From: Candidatus Thiovulum imperiosus
Lineage (GTDB): Bacteria; Campylobacterota; Campylobacteria; Campylobacterales; Thiovulaceae
DNA length: 49,498 nucleotides
Direction of reading: 5' to 3'
NCBI GenBank assembly: GCA_024281175.1
Contig: JAMJTW010000034.1
Span: 97,218 to 146,715 of the forward strand
The notes under the pieces are model-generated. The model searched no databases. It saw nothing but the letters and a program-made list of their open reading frames with translations, and was not told the DNA's origin. The position numbers and the translations under genes were made by a program. Below, in pieces: positions 1 to 48,225 of the stretch. Each line of letters opens with the position of its first letter. The first letter of the stretch is position 1.

Positions 1-117
1 TGGGGTGAGAAATCTTTTATTTAGTAAACTATAAGTTTCCAAGATTTCTCAATCACTACGCTCATATCGAAATGACAAAAAAAGTGTTTTGCCCTAAAAA
101 AGCTATTTGGTCATTTT
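1..117 (+). repeat. MITE-like intergenic repeat, copy A (left end cut by window)
   Basis: The sequence from GTGAGAAATC to CGAAATGAC (5-76) matches the core of the copies near 20.1 kb and 13.0 kb. It holds the internal inverted pair GAGAAATC/GATTTCTC. A decayed right terminal repeat, TATTTGGTCA, lies at 104-113. The left end lies outside the window. It sits directly upstream of pheT, so it is part of that gene's promoter neighbourhood. Confidence 0.7.
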
Positions 118-11450: not shown

Positions 11451-11576
11451 AAAAGAGTTAAAATTGAGAATAGGAGACCTCTCTATTCTGCTACGCTCCA
11501 CTGCCGTTAAGTTAAGCAGAGTTAGGAAAACTACCGAAAAATGATGAAGCAGACACATAGTTTAGTTCTACTTATT

Positions 11577-11691
11577 CAAAGATTTCTCAATCGCTTTGCT
11601 CATTTCGAAATGACAAAAACAGGACAAACTCGTCATTTCGAACCCTTTTGGGTGAGAAATCTTTATAATCGGAACAGCTTTTGGTAAGTCC
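11577..11691. repeat. MITE-like repeat, copy B, with halves in swapped order
   Basis: The right half of the element (AAAGATTTCTC to CGAAATGAC, 11577-11614) comes first. After 17 bases the left half follows (GTCATTTCGA to GAGAAATCTTT, 11632-11664). A decayed end TTTTGGTAAGTCC lies at 11679-11691. Copies C and D have the order left-right, so this copy may be the junction between two tandem elements that have lost their outer halves. Confidence 0.65.
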
Positions 11692-11773
11692 AAATAAATG
11701 GAGTTTTAAAACTCTACTCTCTACAAAATAGCTCTTTTTGATAAAATTCAGTAATTTTATAAGGAGTGATTAC

Positions 11774-12900: not shown

Positions 12901-13075
12901 GGGGGGTGACCAAATAGACTTCTGCCTCTCTTGTCATTTAGTGAAACTTCGTTTTCGATATGAGCGTAGCGATACAGAAATCTTGGAAACTTATCGTTTT
13001 ACTAAAAGATTTCTCACCCGAAAGGGTTCGAAATGACATATAGGTTGAGCCTAAAAATACTCTTTGGTCAGTCCC
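12901..13075 (-). repeat. MITE-like repeat, copy C, with terminal repeats and target duplication
   Basis: The outer ends are GGGGGGTGACCAAAT (left) and TTTGGTCAGTCCC (right). The core (12933-13037) is the reverse complement of copy D. The 8 bases outside the ends are TAAAATGA and TAAAATAA, a 7 of 8 match that looks like a target duplication. A short insertion near the inner end (GAAACTTCGTTTT region) distinguishes it from copy D. There is no coding capacity. Confidence 0.75.
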
Positions 13076-14823: not shown

Positions 14824-14955
14824 GAGACTGACCAAATAGCTTTTTCAAGTCAAAACACTCTGAGAGAGGTTCTTTCAGAACTGACCGAAGAGTCTTTTTC
14901 TTAAGACTCTTCACATTCGCTCGGAGAGGAAATCCTACTCTATTTAGCTAGTCCC
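14824..14955 (+). repeat. intergenic repeat with MITE-like ends and a GAGTCT hairpin
   Basis: The left end GAGACTGACCAAATAG matches the outer ends of copies C and D. The right end TATTTAGCTAGTCCC is a decayed match to the other end. The interior differs from C and D: 14857-14912 matches the reverse complement of 40654-40717 after the Amt-chemoreceptor gene, including ACACTCTGAG, AGAACTGACCGAAGAGTC and the hairpin. It fills the 180-base gap between gspE and the restriction gene. Confidence 0.6.
14887..14912 (+). terminator. hairpin after gspE
   Basis: GAAGAGTCT and AGACTCTTC pair around TTTTCTTA. It lies 70 bases after the gspE stop within the repeat described at 14824. Confidence 0.65.
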
Positions 14956-14998
14956 CTACTTTTCTGATAAAATTTTTTAAAAACTGGAAGTGGAAAAG

Positions 14999-17746
14999 AT
15001 GATAGAAGAGTATAAATTTCGGGCAGACTCTTTTGCTAGAGAGTGGCAGAGTGCAAAGTATGAAAGAGGTGAGGCTCAAACATTTTGGAATGAGTTTTTA
15101 GAGATATTTGGAATAGATAGAAAACTTGTAGCCTCTTTTGAAGAGCCGATAAAAAAGATAGATGGAAGACAGGGTTATATCGATATGTTTTGGAAAGGGA
15201 AAGTTCTAATTGAGCATAAATCTCTTGGAAAAGATTTAGATGGTGCATTTCAACAAGCTATCGACTATTTACCAAATATACCAGAAGAGGATAAGCCTGA
15301 ATATATCATTGTTTCAGATTTTCAGAATTTTGAAATTCACCATTTGGAGAGTAAAGAAGAGAAGAAGTTTGGACTACCAGAACTTTCAGAAAACATAGAG
15401 AATTTCACTTTTCTTGAAGAGAGTTTTTATAAAATTTATGAAGAGAGAAAAGAGTTAAATATAAAAGCTGGATACCTCATCGGCGAAATACATGATGGTC
15501 TTGTTGAGAGTGGATATAGCAGTGAGAATTTGGACATCTACCTAATTCGGCAACTCTTTATGCTCTTTGCAGATAGCACGGGAATTTGGGACAAAGACCT
15601 TTTTAGAAGTTGGTTTGACTCAATAAAAGAGCCTCGATATATCGGTTCTCAAATGGGAACACTTTTCAATATTTTAGATACTCCAGTAGAAAAGAGGTCG
15701 AGTAACGCAGATGAACTCATTAGGAAATTTCCTTATGTAAATGGAGAGATTTTTAAAGAGAATTTAAATTCAGCATTTTTCGATGAGGTTCTCAAAGAGA
15801 AGTTTCTGAAAGCGTTGGAATTTGATTGGTCTCAGATAAATCCAGTTATTTTCGGCTCTATTTTTCAAGCAAGTATGGATAAAGAGAAAAGGGCAGAACT
15901 CGGTTCTCACTTTACAAGTGAAGAGAATATTTTCAAACTTATCGACCCCCTATTTCTTGATGACTTTTGGAGTGAGTTTCGGAAAAATCGAGATAATAAG
16001 AAGAAATTGGCAAAACTCCAACAGGAAATAGCATCTCTCAAATTTTTAGACCCTGCGTGTGGTTCTGGAAACTTTCTTATTGTTGTTTATCGAGAATTGA
16101 AACTTTTAGAAATTGAAATTATTAAAGTTACAAATACAATACCTCTTGTTTCAATTGAACAGTTTTACGGTTTTGAAATTGATGAATTGGCTTCCAAAAT
16201 TACCGAAGTCGCAATGCTTTTTATTGAACACCAAATGAATATGCGATTAGAAGAGATTTTTCAAAATGCAAAATTCAATATCCCTGTAAAAACTTCAGCC
16301 AATATTTTTAAAATCAATGCTTTAAAAGAGGATTGGCATAAAATTTTACAAACTCAAATGGACTACATAATTGGAAATCCTCCTTTTACTGGTGCTAGAA
16401 ATATGACCAATGAGCAGAAAGATGATGTTTTGTATGTTTTTGATAATATGGAGGGTTCAGGCGATTTAGACCATGTTTCCGCTTGGTATCTTAAATCTGC
16501 CGACTATATGGAAATCTTTCCAGAAACGAAAACAGCACTACTTTCCACAAACTCCGTAACACAAGGTCAGCAAGTTGGTATTCTCTGGAATGAGATTTTA
16601 AACAATATGGGAATGGAAATTCATTTTGCTCACCAAACTTTTAAATGGAGTAATGAAGCAAAAGCAAATGCCCAAGTTCACTGTGTTATTGTCGGTTTTG
16701 GACAGGAAAGTGAAAAGCAGAAGTATCTCTTTGAGTATGCAGATATAAAAGGAAAACCTAAGAGGAAAAGAGTTAATGAGATAAGTCCTTATCTTGTTGC
16801 TAAAGATTTTACCCCTCTTAAAAATCTTTCAAAGCATATTCAAAAAGATACTTTAGAGATGATGATTGGAAGTAAGCCAATTGATGGTGGAAACTATATT
16901 TTTACCGAAGAAGAGAAAGAGGAATTTCTAAAACTTGAACCAAAAGCTGAAAAATATTTTCGAGAATTTTTAGGAGCAAAGGAGTTTTTAAACAGTCAGA
17001 AAAGATTTATTCTTTTACTGAAAGATATTTCTGAGGAAGAGTTGAAAACCATGCCAAAAGTTTTAGAGAGAGTTGAAAAAGTTAGAACATTACGGCTGGA
17101 AAGCAAAAGCAAACCAACCCAAAAACTAGCAGATACTCCAACGAGATTTCATATTGAGACAATTCCAGAAACACAATATTTAGCAATTCCAAGGGTATCT
17201 TCAGAATTACGAGACTATATTCCGATTGGATTTTCAGAAAAAGAAACATTAGCTGGAGACTCTATGCAAATTCTTCCAAATGCTTCACTCTACGAATTTG
17301 GAATTCTAACCTCATCGATGCATATGGCTTTTATGAGAAGTGTTGCGGGTCGTTTAAAAAGTGATTACCGCTACTCCATCGGAATTGTCTATAACAATTT
17401 CCCATTTCCCCAAAGAATTAGAAAAACTTCAAAAGAGAGAGTGGAGAAATTTGCACAAAAGATTTTAGATGTCCGAAAAAGGTATCCAGAAAAGAGTCTA
17501 GCGGAACTCTACAACAACTCTTCGATGCCAGAGGATTTGAGAAAAGCTCACAAAGAGTTAGACAAAGTTGTAGATAAGTTGTATGCGGGTAGGGAAATCA
17601 AAAACGACTCAACAAGAGTTAAAAAGGTTTTGGAACTTCGTTCAAAAATTACGGGTGATGAGGTTGTCAAAAAGTCTGAGTCGAAAAGAAAAAGAAGTAT
17701 AGAAAAGCCAATTCGGGTAGCGGTTCAGGGAGAATTCGATTTGTAA
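14999..17746 (+). CDS. single-chain restriction-modification enzyme, MmeI-like (type IIL)
   Basis: One polypeptide combines an endonuclease, an adenine methyltransferase and a target-recognition region. The nuclease motif is D62-X9-E72-H-K74 (in YIDMFWKGKVLIEHKS), the same spacing as D70-X9-EXK82 of MmeI. Methyltransferase motif I is DPACGSGNF (from D351) and motif IV is NPPF (from N460). The C-terminal part (about 600-880) should hold the target recognition domain and ends in a Lys/Arg-rich tail. Length (915) is close to MmeI (919). I chose the ATG at 14999 because GGAAG lies 8 bases upstream; a GTG at 14990 is also possible. No separate methylase or specificity gene is near, as expected for this class. 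Cleavage specificity cannot be read from sequence. Confidence 0.88.
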   Translation: MIEEYKFRADSFAREWQSAKYERGEAQTFWNEFLEIFGIDRKLVASFEEPIKKIDGRQGYIDMFWKGKVLIEHKSLGKDLDGAFQQAIDYLPNIPEEDKPEYIIVSDFQNFEIHHLESKEEKKFGLPELSENIENFTFLEESFYKIYEERKELNIKAGYLIGEIHDGLVESGYSSENLDIYLIRQLFMLFADSTGIWDKDLFRSWFDSIKEPRYIGSQMGTLFNILDTPVEKRSSNADELIRKFPYVNGEIFKENLNSAFFDEVLKEKFLKALEFDWSQINPVIFGSIFQASMDKEKRAELGSHFTSEENIFKLIDPLFLDDFWSEFRKNRDNKKKLAKLQQEIASLKFLDPACGSGNFLIVVYRELKLLEIEIIKVTNTIPLVSIEQFYGFEIDELASKITEVAMLFIEHQMNMRLEEIFQNAKFNIPVKTSANIFKINALKEDWHKILQTQMDYIIGNPPFTGARNMTNEQKDDVLYVFDNMEGSGDLDHVSAWYLKSADYMEIFPETKTALLSTNSVTQGQQVGILWNEILNNMGMEIHFAHQTFKWSNEAKANAQVHCVIVGFGQESEKQKYLFEYADIKGKPKRKRVNEISPYLVAKDFTPLKNLSKHIQKDTLEMMIGSKPIDGGNYIFTEEEKEEFLKLEPKAEKYFREFLGAKEFLNSQKRFILLLKDISEEELKTMPKVLERVEKVRTLRLESKSKPTQKLADTPTRFHIETIPETQYLAIPRVSSELRDYIPIGFSEKETLAGDSMQILPNASLYEFGILTSSMHMAFMRSVAGRLKSDYRYSIGIVYNNFPFPQRIRKTSKERVEKFAQKILDVRKRYPEKSLAELYNNSSMPEDLRKAHKELDKVVDKLYAGREIKNDSTRVKKVLELRSKITGDEVVKKSESKRKRSIEKPIRVAVQGEFDL

Positions 17747-19098: not shown

Positions 19099-19944
19099 CT
19101 AATTTAAAATTTTTAATAGGTTTCCAACAGTATCTCTCATCTCACTTCTTTTAACAATCATATCAATTGCTCCATGCTCTAAAAGAAACTCTGCTCTCTG
19201 AAAACCTTCTGGTAAATCTGAGCCGATAGTCTGTTTAATAACTCTCTGTCCAGCAAATCCAACAAGAGCATTCGGTTCAGCAATGATAATATCTCCAAGA
19301 GTTGCAAAAGATGCACTAACACCACCCATTGTTGGGTCAGTTAAAATTGAGATGTAAGGTAATCCTGCGTCAGAGAGTTTTGCAAGAGCTGAACTAGTTT
19401 TTGCCATCTGCATAAGAGAGAATGTAGACTCCTGCATTCTAGCTCCACCTGAAGCTGAAACAATTACTAAACCCCGCCTATTTTTAATTGCTCTATCTAT
19501 TGCTCTAACAATTTTCTCTCCCTCAACAGAACCGAGACTACCACCCATAAATGAGAAATCAAAAATTACAACTTCCGCTTCTTCTCCAGAAATTGTTGCT
19601 GTTCCACTAATAGCTGAAGAGAGCTTTCCACTTTTTGTGAATGCATCATCAACTCTTTTCTTGTAACTTTTACTATCAACAAATTTTAAAGGGTCTATTG
19701 GATATAAATCTTTATCATGCTCAACAAAACTATTTTCATCTAAAAGATACTCTATTCGATGTTTCACTCCAACTCTAATATGATGATTGCATTTTGGACA
19801 AACATACATCTGGTTTTCAACCTCTTTGTAATACATTAATGCTCGACAAGATGAACATTTTATCCAGTGTGATGGTGCTTCACTCCTTTTTGGTTGAGGC
19901 TTTTTCTCTCTCTCATTACTTTTAAAAATATCAAGAAACGACAT
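19099..19944 (-). CDS. accD: acetyl-CoA carboxylase carboxyltransferase subunit beta
   Basis: AccD with AccA transfers the carboxyl group from biotin to acetyl-CoA, the first committed step of fatty acid synthesis. The zinc ribbon is C30-x2-C33 and C49-x2-C52. The crotonase-fold core shows SASGGARMQE and PTMGGVSASFA. Length (281) fits. AAGGAG precedes the ATG. The 255 bases upstream hold a MITE-like repeat (20021-20188). Confidence 0.95.
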   Translation of the reverse strand: MSFLDIFKSNEREKKPQPKRSEAPSHWIKCSSCRALMYYKEVENQMYVCPKCNHHIRVGVKHRIEYLLDENSFVEHDKDLYPIDPLKFVDSKSYKKRVDDAFTKSGKLSSAISGTATISGEEAEVVIFDFSFMGGSLGSVEGEKIVRAIDRAIKNRRGLVIVSASGGARMQESTFSLMQMAKTSSALAKLSDAGLPYISILTDPTMGGVSASFATLGDIIIAEPNALVGFAGQRVIKQTIGSDLPEGFQRAEFLLEHGAIDMIVKRSEMRDTVGNLLKILN

Positions 19945-20020
19945 CTATCTCCTTAAAAAACTTTTCGACAATTTTATTCTAAATTTATTGGAATCTGAAC
20001 TTTAATTTTGAAAAAATTAT

Positions 20021-20188
20021 GGGAGTGACCAAATAAAGTATTTTTATATTTCAACAATTTATATGTCATTTCGAACCCTTTCGGGTGAGAAATCTTTTAT
20101 TTGGTAAAACGGTAAGTTTCCAAGATTTCTCAATCGCTACGCTCATATCGAAATGACAAGAGAGGCAGAAACCTGTTTGGTCATTCCC
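20021..20188 (+). repeat. MITE-like repeat, copy D, the best preserved
   Basis: The outer inverted ends are GGGAGTGACCAAA (20021-20033) and TTTGGTCATTCCC (20176-20188). A nested core at 20065-20157 starts GTCATTTCGA and ends TCGAAATGAC and holds the inner pair GAGAAATC/GATTTCTC. The 8 bases on both sides are AAAATTAT (20013-20020 and 20189-20196), a perfect direct repeat. With 168 bases and no gene it fits a non-autonomous transposed element. Confidence 0.8.
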
Positions 20189-20199
20189 AAAATTATAAT

Positions 20200-20799
20200 T
20201 TAGCCTTTAAACTTTTCAGCCGTAGCGACACCATCTTGATTTACATCACTTCTTTTCAAAACTTTCCAGATAGTTAAAAAGAAGATATAAAAATCTAGTT
20301 TTAGACTCACTCTCTTTGCATAGAAAACATCATAACGAAACTTGTTTTTCCAAGAGATATTGTTTCTACCTTTTATTTGAGCCAATCCAGTAATTCCAGC
20401 TTTAACATCATGTCGCTGTTTCTGAAAATTTGAGTAGAGTGGTAGATATTCTGGCAATAGAGGACGAGGACCGATAAAAGAGATATCACCTTTTAAAACA
20501 TTGAAAAGTTGAGGTAATTCATCAAGAGAGAGATTTCTTACCTTTTTACCGAAACCTCTTAATCGAACCTCATCAGCTAAAAGTTCTCCATTCTCATCTC
20601 TCTCATCTGTCATAGTTCGAAACTTATATATTTTAAATATCTTCCCTTTTTTAGTAGGTCGAAGCTGAGTAAAGATAACTGGCGAACCCATCTGAACTCT
20701 AATAAGCAGTGCAACCAAAAGTAGTACTAAAGAGAATAGAATTAGTAAAATTAGTGCAAAAACTCTATCTGAAATTGGTTTAAAAAAACTTTTATACAT
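20200..20799 (-). CDS. pglC: undecaprenyl-phosphate sugar-1-phosphate transferase, PglC-like
   Basis: This is a monotopic phosphoglycosyl transferase that places a sugar phosphate on the undecaprenyl carrier at the inner membrane. One N-terminal re-entrant hydrophobic helix ([20 protein letters not shown]) is followed by [24 protein letters not shown] and [15 protein letters not shown]. At 199 residues it has the compact size of Campylobacter PglC, and the resemblance runs along its full length. Its N-glycosylation partners (pglA, pglB and others) are not in the window, so the glycan it starts is uncertain. It is divergent from alaS. Confidence 0.82.
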
Positions 20800-30621: not shown

Positions 30622-30665
30622 TTAAAACTACCTCCAAAAAGAGAAGCGAGAATGAATTTTTTCAT
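30612..30665 (-). CDS. 17-residue leader peptide ahead of the protease
   Basis: The frame MKKFILASLFGGSFKCF starts behind GGAGG with 6-base spacing, stronger than most sites here. It ends 10 bases inside the protease gene in another frame. Its first seven residues (MKKFILA) and all upstream DNA are shared with the leader at 46229. It reads like the beginning of a signal peptide. It may couple translation to the protease start or be a relic of the gene that originally followed the cassette. Confidence 0.5.
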   Translation of the reverse strand: MKKFILASLFGGSFKCF

Positions 30666-30945
30666 CTCATACCTCCGAAATTTATTTGGTAAGATTATAT
30701 ATAGTTAAAGCTAAAAAAAAAAAAACAGTTTTAAATATAAGAAAAATTTTTTAAGAAAGATATATATATGTTATAAAATATGAATAAAATTGCTTTCACA
30801 AAATCTATTTTCAGAAAAAATAGTAGCGGTAAAACCATGCTTTTCAAAATTTTAAATTCTTAGGTTTCTCAAAATCTTCAAAAATATGATTTAAGAAAAT
30901 ATTTCTCTGTTTTCTGGATAGGAAACAAATTTTGTTAGAGTTTTG
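30644..30945 (-). repeat. promoter-leader cassette, left inverted copy
   Basis: This stretch is the reverse complement of 45952-46250 with, by eye, about 85-90% identity, and is nearly identical over the last 70 bases. Read on the minus strand it holds conserved upstream DNA including GTTTTACCGCTACTATTTTT, a run of 13 T (30725-30713), TATAAT (30699-30694), GGAGG (30676-30672) and the leader start. Homology stops inside the leader codons. It drives the protease and lipoprotein genes. The 300-base gap to the HEPN gene holds nothing else. Confidence 0.85.
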
Positions 30946-30964
30946 CTAAAACGGAATTTTTAAA

Positions 30965-40634: not shown

Positions 40635-40653
40635 AAACTTCCTCTCTAAACGT

Positions 40654-40681
40654 AAGAGTCTGCAATTTGAGATAGACTCTT
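40654..40681. terminator. hairpin between the signalling operon and the convergent Amt-chemoreceptor gene
   Basis: AAGAGTCT and AGACTCTT pair around a 12-base loop. It lies within a repeat (40654-40717) whose reverse complement is found at 14857-14912. It can end both convergent genes. Confidence 0.65.
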
Positions 40682-40719
40682 CGGTCAGTTCTAAAAGAAC
40701 TTCCCTCAGAGTGTTTTAC

Positions 40720-45206: not shown

Positions 45207-45950
45207 GTGAAGTCACACTTCAACAATAATTTACAAGGAGGATTGGATATTTCAAAAAATTTTATTTCATATATCCCAAATGGCTTGTGCAGTGTGAATT
45301 TAAAAGTTTCAGAAAATCTTGTTAATGAGTTTCCAGAGTGTTTCGATTTTGAAAACTCTTATAAGCTCAAAATTCACTATTCTCAAAATGGTGATGAGGT
45401 AGAGTTCTTGCCTCTTTTTGGAAATGACTACAATGAAACATCTTTTCATTGGGATTTTGGTAATGGAGAAACTTCAAATTTAGAGAAGCCAACTCATCGA
45501 TATGAAAAGTATGGAAACTATGAAGTTGTTTTAAAAGCTGGAAACTTAGAAGTTGTGAAAGAGATAGATTTTTGGAAAAGAGAATTAGAAATTGAAGCAA
45601 GAAAGTGGTATCTTCTCTCAAATCCAACTAGAGAAATTTTGTATCTTCCTGAAAATACTGTTTCTTGGGTATTTAGAAGAGAAGAATGGATTTTAAACCC
45701 TCTCTGGATTGAACCAACTGAAGGTTTCTTTCTAAAAAGTGAAAAAGATTTCACCCTTGAATTTGATGGAACAAATTACTCAAAAATAGAGCCGTCTAAC
45801 AAATGGCAACTTTTGGGAAATGGAGAAAGTTCATACAATTTAGAAAAGAGTTACATTTTTAGAAATGGAAGTTGGATTGTAAATCCTGAAAAAATAGAAC
45901 CTTTTGAAGGCTTCTGGTTAAAAGATATTTTTCATACTTCTAGTTTTTAA
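45207..45950 (+). CDS. PKD-domain protein with two C-terminal Trp-rich repeats
   Basis: A PKD domain is clear at about 65-115 (FHWDFGNGETSNLEKPTHRY, then YGNYEVVLKAG). Two copies of a Trp-rich repeat follow: the first (about 132-190) runs WYLLSNPTREILY...EGFFLK and the second (about 197-243) runs WQLLGNGESSYNL...EGFWLK, sharing W.LL.N, F R..W..NP..IEP.EGF.LK. No signal peptide is seen. The frame begins with GTG directly after the HAD stop. A much better AAGGAGG lies at 45235-45241, inside the frame, with no normal start codon at the right distance (an ATT is at 45249). The true start is therefore uncertain. Confidence 0.7.
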   Translation: MKSHFNNNLQGGLDISKNFISYIPNGLCSVNLKVSENLVNEFPECFDFENSYKLKIHYSQNGDEVEFLPLFGNDYNETSFHWDFGNGETSNLEKPTHRYEKYGNYEVVLKAGNLEVVKEIDFWKRELEIEARKWYLLSNPTREILYLPENTVSWVFRREEWILNPLWIEPTEGFFLKSEKDFTLEFDGTNYSKIEPSNKWQLLGNGESSYNLEKSYIFRNGSWIVNPEKIEPFEGFWLKDIFHTSSF

Positions 45951-45951
45951 T

Positions 45952-46250
45952 AAAAGTTTAACAGAGCTTGTTTTCAAAATAGAAAACAGAGAAATATTTT
46001 CTTAAATCATATTTTTGAATATTTGAAGAAACTTAAGAATTCATGATTTCAAAAAACACTGTTTTACCGCTACTATTTTTCTAAAAATATATTTTGTGAA
46101 AGTAATTTCAATCATATTTTACAACATATACTTGATTTTCTTAAGAAATTTTTCTTATATTCAAAACAGTTTTTTTTTTTTAGTTTTAACTATATATAAT
46201 CTTACCAAATAAATTTCGGAGGTATGAGATGAAAAAATTCATTCTCGCTT
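45952..46250 (+). repeat. promoter-leader cassette, right inverted copy
   Basis: This is the partner of 30644-30945 in the opposite orientation, 15 kb away. It carries the shared GTTTTACCGCTACTATTTTT block, a run of 12 T (46170-46181), TATAAT (46195-46200), GGAGG (46218-46222) and the leader start ATGAAAAAATTC. It fills the 278-base gap upstream of the lipoprotein operon, and I see no other feature in that gap. Confidence 0.85.
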
Positions 46251-47235: not shown

Positions 47236-47737
47236 CTTTAGGTTTATATTTTTTATTCTTCTTTTATCCTTTTCTCTTTTTGGGGAAGAGGATAACCAAA
47301 AAGTTAGTTTTGGAACAGGATTAGGTCTAGAGTATGGTGTTCTTGGCTTCCAAACTTCTATGGAACTCTTTTCAGGTAATAGAGTTTTCTTTTCAGCTCT
47401 TCCAATCCAGCCATATATTCATGCACTTGGTGTCTCATCAGACTTATATTTTCTTAAAGATACAAATTTTAGAACTCACTTAACTTATGGTACAACAAGC
47501 TGGGGTTATTCAACTTATCAAAATATGACAAATCAAAGTTTAGGATTTTCAACAGGAGTGAACTATTACTTTTATAAGCCTTATAAGGGTTGGCACTTTG
47601 GACTAGATTATGTTTTATCTGAAACAGATTATAAATATCACTTTAAAGGTTTTGGTTTTTCCAAATGGTCTAAATCTGGTGATAACATATATAGAGACTC
47701 AAGTTTGTTGCGATGGTCATTAGGTTATAAATTTTGA
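47228..47737 (+). CDS. small outer membrane beta-barrel-like protein, paralogue 1
   Basis: The ATG at 47228 gives a clean signal peptide (INFRFIFFILLLSFSLFG); the frame is open from 47195, but that start adds residues before it. The mature protein (about 150 residues) is made of short amphipathic strands and ends LGYKF, a C-terminal Phe barrel signature. It is a close paralogue of the next gene (shared VSFGTG, GFQTSME, RVFFS, IQPYIH, SSDLYFLK, NFRT, GYKF). It overlaps the lipoprotein gene by 8 bases. Confidence 0.78.
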   Translation: MINFRFIFFILLLSFSLFGEEDNQKVSFGTGLGLEYGVLGFQTSMELFSGNRVFFSALPIQPYIHALGVSSDLYFLKDTNFRTHLTYGTTSWGYSTYQNMTNQSLGFSTGVNYYFYKPYKGWHFGLDYVLSETDYKYHFKGFGFSKWSKSGDNIYRDSSLLRWSLGYKF

Positions 47738-48225
47738 AAAAGATAATACTTTTTATTTTTTTATCCTTTTCTCTTTTTGGAGAAGAGAATAATTCCAAAG
47801 TCAGTTTTGGAACAGGTATTGGTCAAGAGTATGGAGTTTTTGGTTTTCAAACTTCTATGGAAGTTTTTTCAGGCAGTAGAGTTTTCTTTTCATTTTTCCC
47901 TATCCAGCCATACATTCACACAATTGGTATATCATCTGATTTATATTTTCTTAAAAACACAAACTTTAGAACATATTTAGCCTATGGAACATTTGTTTTT
48001 AGTCCCCTAAATAATACTACTATGAACCACATGCTTAGCACATCAATAGGTTTGGACTATTACTTCTCTAAACCATATCAAGGTTGGCACTTAGGAGTTG
48101 GTACAATGATATATAGTTCTCAATACACATATGATTGGAAAAGTTTTGGTTTTTCAGATTGGCACAAATATGACTCAGGGTATGGAACTATACCAATAGT
48201 TTTTTCATTAGGTTATAAATTTTAA
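47734..48225 (+). CDS. small outer membrane beta-barrel-like protein, paralogue 2
   Basis: The TTG start overlaps the stop of paralogue 1 (TTGA). The signal peptide is KKIILFIFLSFSLFG. It has the same strand pattern and the same LGYKF end as paralogue 1. The two differ most in the region around residues 90-150, likely surface loops. DNA identity is highest in the 5' third, so this is a tandem duplication that has diverged in loops. Confidence 0.78.
   Translation: MKKIILFIFLSFSLFGEENNSKVSFGTGIGQEYGVFGFQTSMEVFSGSRVFFSFFPIQPYIHTIGISSDLYFLKNTNFRTYLAYGTFVFSPLNNTTMNHMLSTSIGLDYYFSKPYQGWHLGVGTMIYSSQYTYDWKSFGFSDWHKYDSGYGTIPIVFSLGYKF

What the first reader, a model, noticed from the sequence alone, without database searches (positions are those of the whole stretch)
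20013..20196. MITE-like element with nested inverted repeats and a perfect 8-bp target duplication
Copy D has outer ends GGGAGTGACCAAA/TTTGGTCATTCCC, an inner repeat GTCATTTCGA/TCGAAATGAC and AAAATTAT on both sides. Copy C at 12901-13075 lies in the opposite orientation with TAAAATGA/TAAAATAA outside its ends. Copy A is cut by the window edge. Two independent duplications of the same size support transposition rather than simple intergenic palindromes. No transposase is in the window.
Basis: seen in the sequence. Interest (0 to 1): 0.58.

Follow-up and report, generated by a model that had tools for sequence, protein, structure and literature searches.

The report
Modular MITE family without a transposase
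A short, gene-less jumping element copied dozens of times in a giant sulfur bacterium's genome; its ends recur on several unrelated hairpin fillings, and also in a gammaproteobacterial genome, while the enzyme that moves it was not found.

Summary
The finding is real. Copy D is a 168-bp element (20021-20188) with 16-bp terminal inverted repeats GGGANTGACCAAATAG and a perfect 8-bp target duplication AAAATTAT. The genome (2.2 Mb; by assembly statistics Ca. Thiovulum imperiosus, inferred) holds 129 such ends at <=1 mismatch against 0 for the reversed-pattern control. Of 43 elements delimited without looking at their flanks, 16 have perfect 8-bp duplications (re-pairing mean 0.48, maximum 4 in 1000); lengths 3-7 and 9-12 give 0 or 1. 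Copies lie between genes. It is a MITE. The parent transposase family is unknown. New member of a known kind, with an unusual modular build.

The parts
20013..20020 (.). 8-bp target duplication, left (AAAATTAT)
20021..20036 (+). 16-bp terminal inverted repeat, left
20021..20188 (+). Copy D, complete family-I MITE, 168 bp
20065..20097 (+). Core hairpin unit a: GTC-ATTTC-GA-X-GA-GAAAT-CTT
20122..20157 (-). Core hairpin unit b, inverted copy of the same design
20173..20188 (-). 16-bp terminal inverted repeat, right
20189..20196 (.). 8-bp target duplication, right (AAAATTAT)
12901..13075 (-). Copy C, family-I MITE; flanks TAAAATGA/TAAAATAA (7/8)
11564..11692 (+). Copy B: degenerate, two core units in reversed order and a decayed right end
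1..113 (+). Copy A: last part of a tandem array of cores with a decayed right end; cut by a run of N just outside the window
14824..14955 (+). Family-II MITE: same ends, different core (CACTCTGAG / CGAAGAGTC)
40640..40717 (-). Family-II core without recognisable ends, squeezed between two genes

Best explanation
[quoted passage not shown] Shown: 16-bp ends, an 8-bp A+T-rich target duplication, many dispersed copies (most often 164-176 bp), no coding capacity, almost all copies between genes. Inferred: a DDE transposase acting in trans binds the GGGANTGACCAAATAG ends, excises or copies the segment and inserts it by an 8-base staggered cut, filled in by the host. The autonomous partner is absent from the assembly or unrecognised, so the family probably lived on transposase acquired in the past and since lost. 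Only the ends matter to the enzyme, so they can carry different fillings: at least three cores in this genome and at least two in a gammaproteobacterium. The transposase family is not determined.
For: 129 ends at <=1 mismatch, control 0. 16 of 43 perfect duplications only at k=8; duplications 82% A+T in the 21 that pass at >=7/8. Both family I and family II have 8/8 cases (family II: L052, 125 bp). 114 distinct ends cluster into groups of 34, 30, 12, 8, 6 and smaller that share the 16-mer and then diverge. 42 of 43 elements are not contained in an ORF >=100 aa (35 intergenic, 7 partly overlapping, 1 inside), while such ORFs cover 91% of the window. The same ends, 8-bp duplications (6 of 6 distinct full-length copies in the fetched loci at 7-8/8) and several copies in MAG CSMAG_1677 with an unrelated core. 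Mean pairwise identity of 30 aligned copies 0.89.
Against: No autonomous partner found: Pfam PF12762, PF00872, PF01609 and PF01610 negative in the own genome, PF12762 negative in the gammaproteobacterial MAG, no element end within the last 77 bases of the 71 contig ends examined. 22 of 43 elements lack a 7/8 duplication. No empty site shown: the joined-flank search over the fetched stretches of the own genome gave only two trivial self-matches.
Confidence: 0.93

Rival explanations
1. REP/REPIN-like palindromes moved by a tyrosine (HUH, RAYT) transposase acting on the hairpin cores; the outer ends are bystanders.
For: Cores consist of paired inverted hairpin units, occur in tandem without ends (L035) and alone (40640-40717); the gammaproteobacterial cores begin with GTAG, as REPs do (PMC3733652, passages seen).
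Against: 8-bp duplications lie exactly outside the outer ends, and the outer ends are what unrelated cores share. E. coli RayT finds no relative in the stretches fetched, which are a minority of the genome. It may well be true of the cores themselves.
Confidence: 0.05
2. Selected intergenic structures (transcription terminators or RNA hairpins) kept for function, not by mobility.
For: Stable folds (z about -5 as DNA or RNA); intergenic, often next to stop codons.
Against: Exact 8-bp duplications and a high-copy distribution not seen in relatives; no Rfam match at these sites.
Confidence: 0.02
3. A MITE as above, with an IS1595-family (IS1016-like) insertion sequence as its parent.
For: 8-bp duplications fit (a 165-bp IS1595-derived MITE with 8-bp repeats is listed in PMC3852290, passages seen); IS1595 elements of the order have ends such as GGGGCTAGACTAG and GGGTCTAGACTAG.
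Against: Similarity of those ends to ours is not above shuffles (p 0.19-0.76); no PF12762 match in the own genome or in the MAG.
Confidence: 0.2

Closest known systems
Bacterial MITEs in general (RUP, NEMIS, Nezha, MITEAba12, the 165-bp MITE of ISHwa6/IS1595)
   Same: Short, no coding capacity, terminal repeats, fixed-size target duplication, intergenic, many copies.
   Different: No autonomous partner identified; the same ends sit on several unrelated hairpin cores.
REP / BIME / REPIN repeats (GTAG- and CGTC-tagged palindromes)
   Same: The inner cores are paired, inverted, stem-loop units, some in tandem; the gammaproteobacterial ones start with GTAG.
   Different: Here enclosed by transposase-type ends with 8-bp duplications; the Thiovulum units begin GTCA and carry neither tag within family-I elements; no RAYT seen in the part searched.
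IS1595-family insertion sequences of the same order (loci L200, L204, L206)
   Same: Ends beginning GGG; 8-bp duplications for the family (recalled, and one table row in PMC3852290).
   Different: End sequences not significantly alike; transposase not in this genome.

Membership tests
MITE | Short, non-coding, multi-copy element with terminal inverted repeats | tested here: met
MITE | Fixed-length target duplication | tested here: met
   16 of 43 perfect at 8 bp, re-pairing mean 0.48; MAG 6 of 6 at 7-8/8
MITE | Ends match those of an autonomous element | tested here: inconclusive
   No autonomous element found
MITE | Empty sites in relatives | not tested
IS1595 family | DDE_Tnp_IS1595 transposase linked to the ends | tested here: not met
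   PF12762 absent from own genome and MAG
IS1595 family | Similar terminal repeats | tested here: not met
   p 0.19-0.76 against shuffles
REP/REPIN (cores) | Palindromic hairpin units, often inverted pairs | tested here: met
REP/REPIN (cores) | GTAG or CGTC tag | tested here: not met
   Thiovulum family-I units begin GTCA, preceded by T in the elements; the MAG cores do begin GTAG
REP/REPIN (cores) | Associated RAYT gene | tested here: inconclusive
   No RayT relative, but in the fetched stretches only

The most novel reading that the evidence does not exclude
A two-layer mobile system: one set of DDE-transposase ends, shared between Campylobacterota and Gammaproteobacteria, acts as a shell that repeatedly takes up whatever REP/BIME-like hairpins are resident in the host, so that stem-loop repeats spread inside a MITE. 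The cores of the three Thiovulum families share one design, A-N4-GA ... GA-N4'-T-CT, with the four stem bases exchanged in complementary fashion (TTTC/GAAA, CTCT/AGAG, CCTC/GAGG), pointing to selection on the hairpin itself.
Probability: 0.3. Interest if true: 0.6.

Novelty: new member of a known kind. Interest (0 to 1): 0.37.

Why it matters
It gives a well-documented MITE family in a giant, uncultured sulfur bacterium and a clear case in which the same transposase ends carry unrelated hairpin cores in two phyla. If the cores are captured REP-like repeats, it links two classes of bacterial small repeats usually treated apart, and the 72-bp and 151-bp gammaproteobacterial copies offer a direct view of a core gained or lost.

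Tried and rejected
Parent IS: Pfam searches of the own genome for IS1595, IS256, DDE_Tnp_1 and ISL3, all negative. 71 contig ends were examined for a collapsed IS: none. Viral scans (20, 8 and 59 stretches): no partner end with a duplication in the first and third sets; the second was used only for core motifs. Plasmids and phages: no match.

Segments bounded by ends in the right orientation that hold a gene (C8:37203-38731 with a C5 cytosine methyltransferase; C9:96821-98666 with a Bro-N/HTH/DUF559-like protein): no convincing 8-bp duplication, and the second mixes ends of two families, so I treat them as genes between neighbouring MITEs, not as cargo transposons. Such pairs were looked for by eye among the 100 listed of 129 ends.

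Literature: searches for MITE with IS1595, MITE/TSD/Campylobacterota, REPIN/RAYT/MITE, nested MITE, and the core sequences as text listed no description of these elements; the library holds open-licence papers only. MITEAba12 (PMC6382973, passages) has GGCTTTGTTGCA-type ends and 9-bp duplications and is unrelated.

Full report
Observation. D lies between the 3' end of a sugar-transferase gene (stop at 20200) and the start of accD (ATG at 19944).

Host. The window is G000:C34:97218-146715 of a 2,199,814-base, 36-contig genome. Table 2 of PMC9938260 (section read in full) lists Ca. Thiovulum imperiosus, JAMJTW000000000, with 36 scaffolds and 2.20 Mb, made from a single cell (passages), and relatives whose sizes and contig counts resemble those of G001-G004. 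The identification is therefore an inference from assembly statistics.

Copy number and ends. A DNA search with D gives 43 matches, with 40 of 183 candidates scored. The end pattern GGGANTGACCAAATA with <=1 mismatch gives 66 forward and 63 reverse sites, against 0 and 0 for the reversed pattern. In the fetched stretches 114 distinct ends (<=2 mismatches in 16) fall into groups of 34 and 30 (the two ends of family I), 12 and 8 (family II), 6 (family III) and smaller ones. Beyond the first 16 bases the groups are unlike.

Duplications. 43 elements were delimited by ends alone. Perfect matches of flanks: k=8, 16; k=3, 7 and 9, 1 each; k=4, 5, 6, 10, 11 and 12, 0. With flanks re-paired at random 1000 times, k=8 gave a mean of 0.48 and a maximum of 4. 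21 of 43 have >=7/8. Two of the 43 (L024, L025) are mirror images, since contig C25 is an exact mirror repeat at its two ends, so 42 are independent; neither has a duplication. The rule also left out L013 and L033:521-682, whose flanks agree 8/8 in an earlier, looser script.

Age. 30 aligned copies have mean pairwise identity 0.89 and median nearest-neighbour identity 0.95, so the family is not brand new. Full-length gammaproteobacterial copies match the query at 97-100%.

Context. 35 of 43 are intergenic, 7 overlap an ORF end, 1 lies in an ORF of 119 aa that may be spurious. ORFs >=100 aa cover 91% of the window.

Distribution. D finds nothing in 59 relatives except one 31-bp stretch in G025; of 149 genomes searched for the exact 16-mer only the own genome has it. 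There the element is 163 bp, its left end shares 20 bases with family I (GGGACTGACCAAATAGAGTA), and its core is GTAGGGGCGAATTCATTCGCC in inverted pair. That core also gives dozens of short matches elsewhere in the MAG. All 6 distinct full-length copies in the fetched loci have 7-8/8 duplications (whose 11 rows list five of them on both strands). A second type in the same MAG (ends GGGACAGACCAATTC / GGGACTGATCAAATA) exists as a 72-bp copy and as 151-bp copies with an extra palindrome starting at GTAG: a core gained or lost. The two 151-bp copies have identical flanks and no duplication; the 72-bp copy has 7/8.

Cores. Family-I core units read GTC-ATTTC-GA-X-GA-GAAAT-CTT. Taking the 113 ends and reading the first CA-N4-GA and the next GA-N4-TCT without asking for complementarity, the pairs were TTTC/GAAA 59, CTCT/AGAG 6, CCTC/GAGG 2 (all fully complementary), five ends with three of four complementary and one with none; the rest lacked the first or the second motif. 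In all fetched own sequence 46 of 220 distinct free matches are fully complementary against about 1.4 expected. Copies within a family inherit their pairs, so this is about three independent cases, and a palindromic origin alone could also produce it. The strand folds with z -5.2 as DNA and -5.0 as RNA.

Transposase. None of four Pfam transposase families is in the own genome. IS1595 elements of the order have GGG-type ends that do not resemble ours beyond shuffles. No end lies in the terminal 77 bases of 71 contig ends, so a collapsed multi-copy parent at a contig break is unlikely; C34's other end is the window's end and is 16S rRNA. I cannot exclude a diverged or gap-hidden parent, nor families not searched.

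Verdict. An ordinary kind of element (MITE), well supported, with a build worth noting: one shell, several hairpin fillings, two phyla. The mechanism of movement is inferred from the duplications; the enzyme is unknown.

Noticed in passing
L031 (G000:C8:37203-38731) and L032 (G000:C9:96821-98666): A C5 cytosine methyltransferase gene and a Bro-N/HTH/DUF559-like gene each lie between inward-facing MITE ends; no convincing 8-bp duplication.
   Followed up: partly
window 30640-30951 and 45945-46250: A ~310-bp intergenic repeat in inverted orientation, 82-87% alike, apparently unrelated to the MITE ends.
   Followed up: no
window 14990-17746: MmeI-like restriction-modification protein, 918 aa, next to a family-II MITE.
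   Followed up: no
G000:C25: The first and last 1500 bases of contig C25 are identical in mirror orientation, and a MITE sits at mirror positions, so the contig looks like an assembly or amplification palindrome.
   Followed up: partly
L035:880-1293 (G000:C34:96879-97292): Tandem array of family-I cores without outer ends, interrupted by a run of N just before the window.
   Followed up: no
window 47246-47991: Two adjacent ORFs with an 81% identical 249-nt direct repeat (tandem gene duplication, no Pfam match).
   Followed up: no
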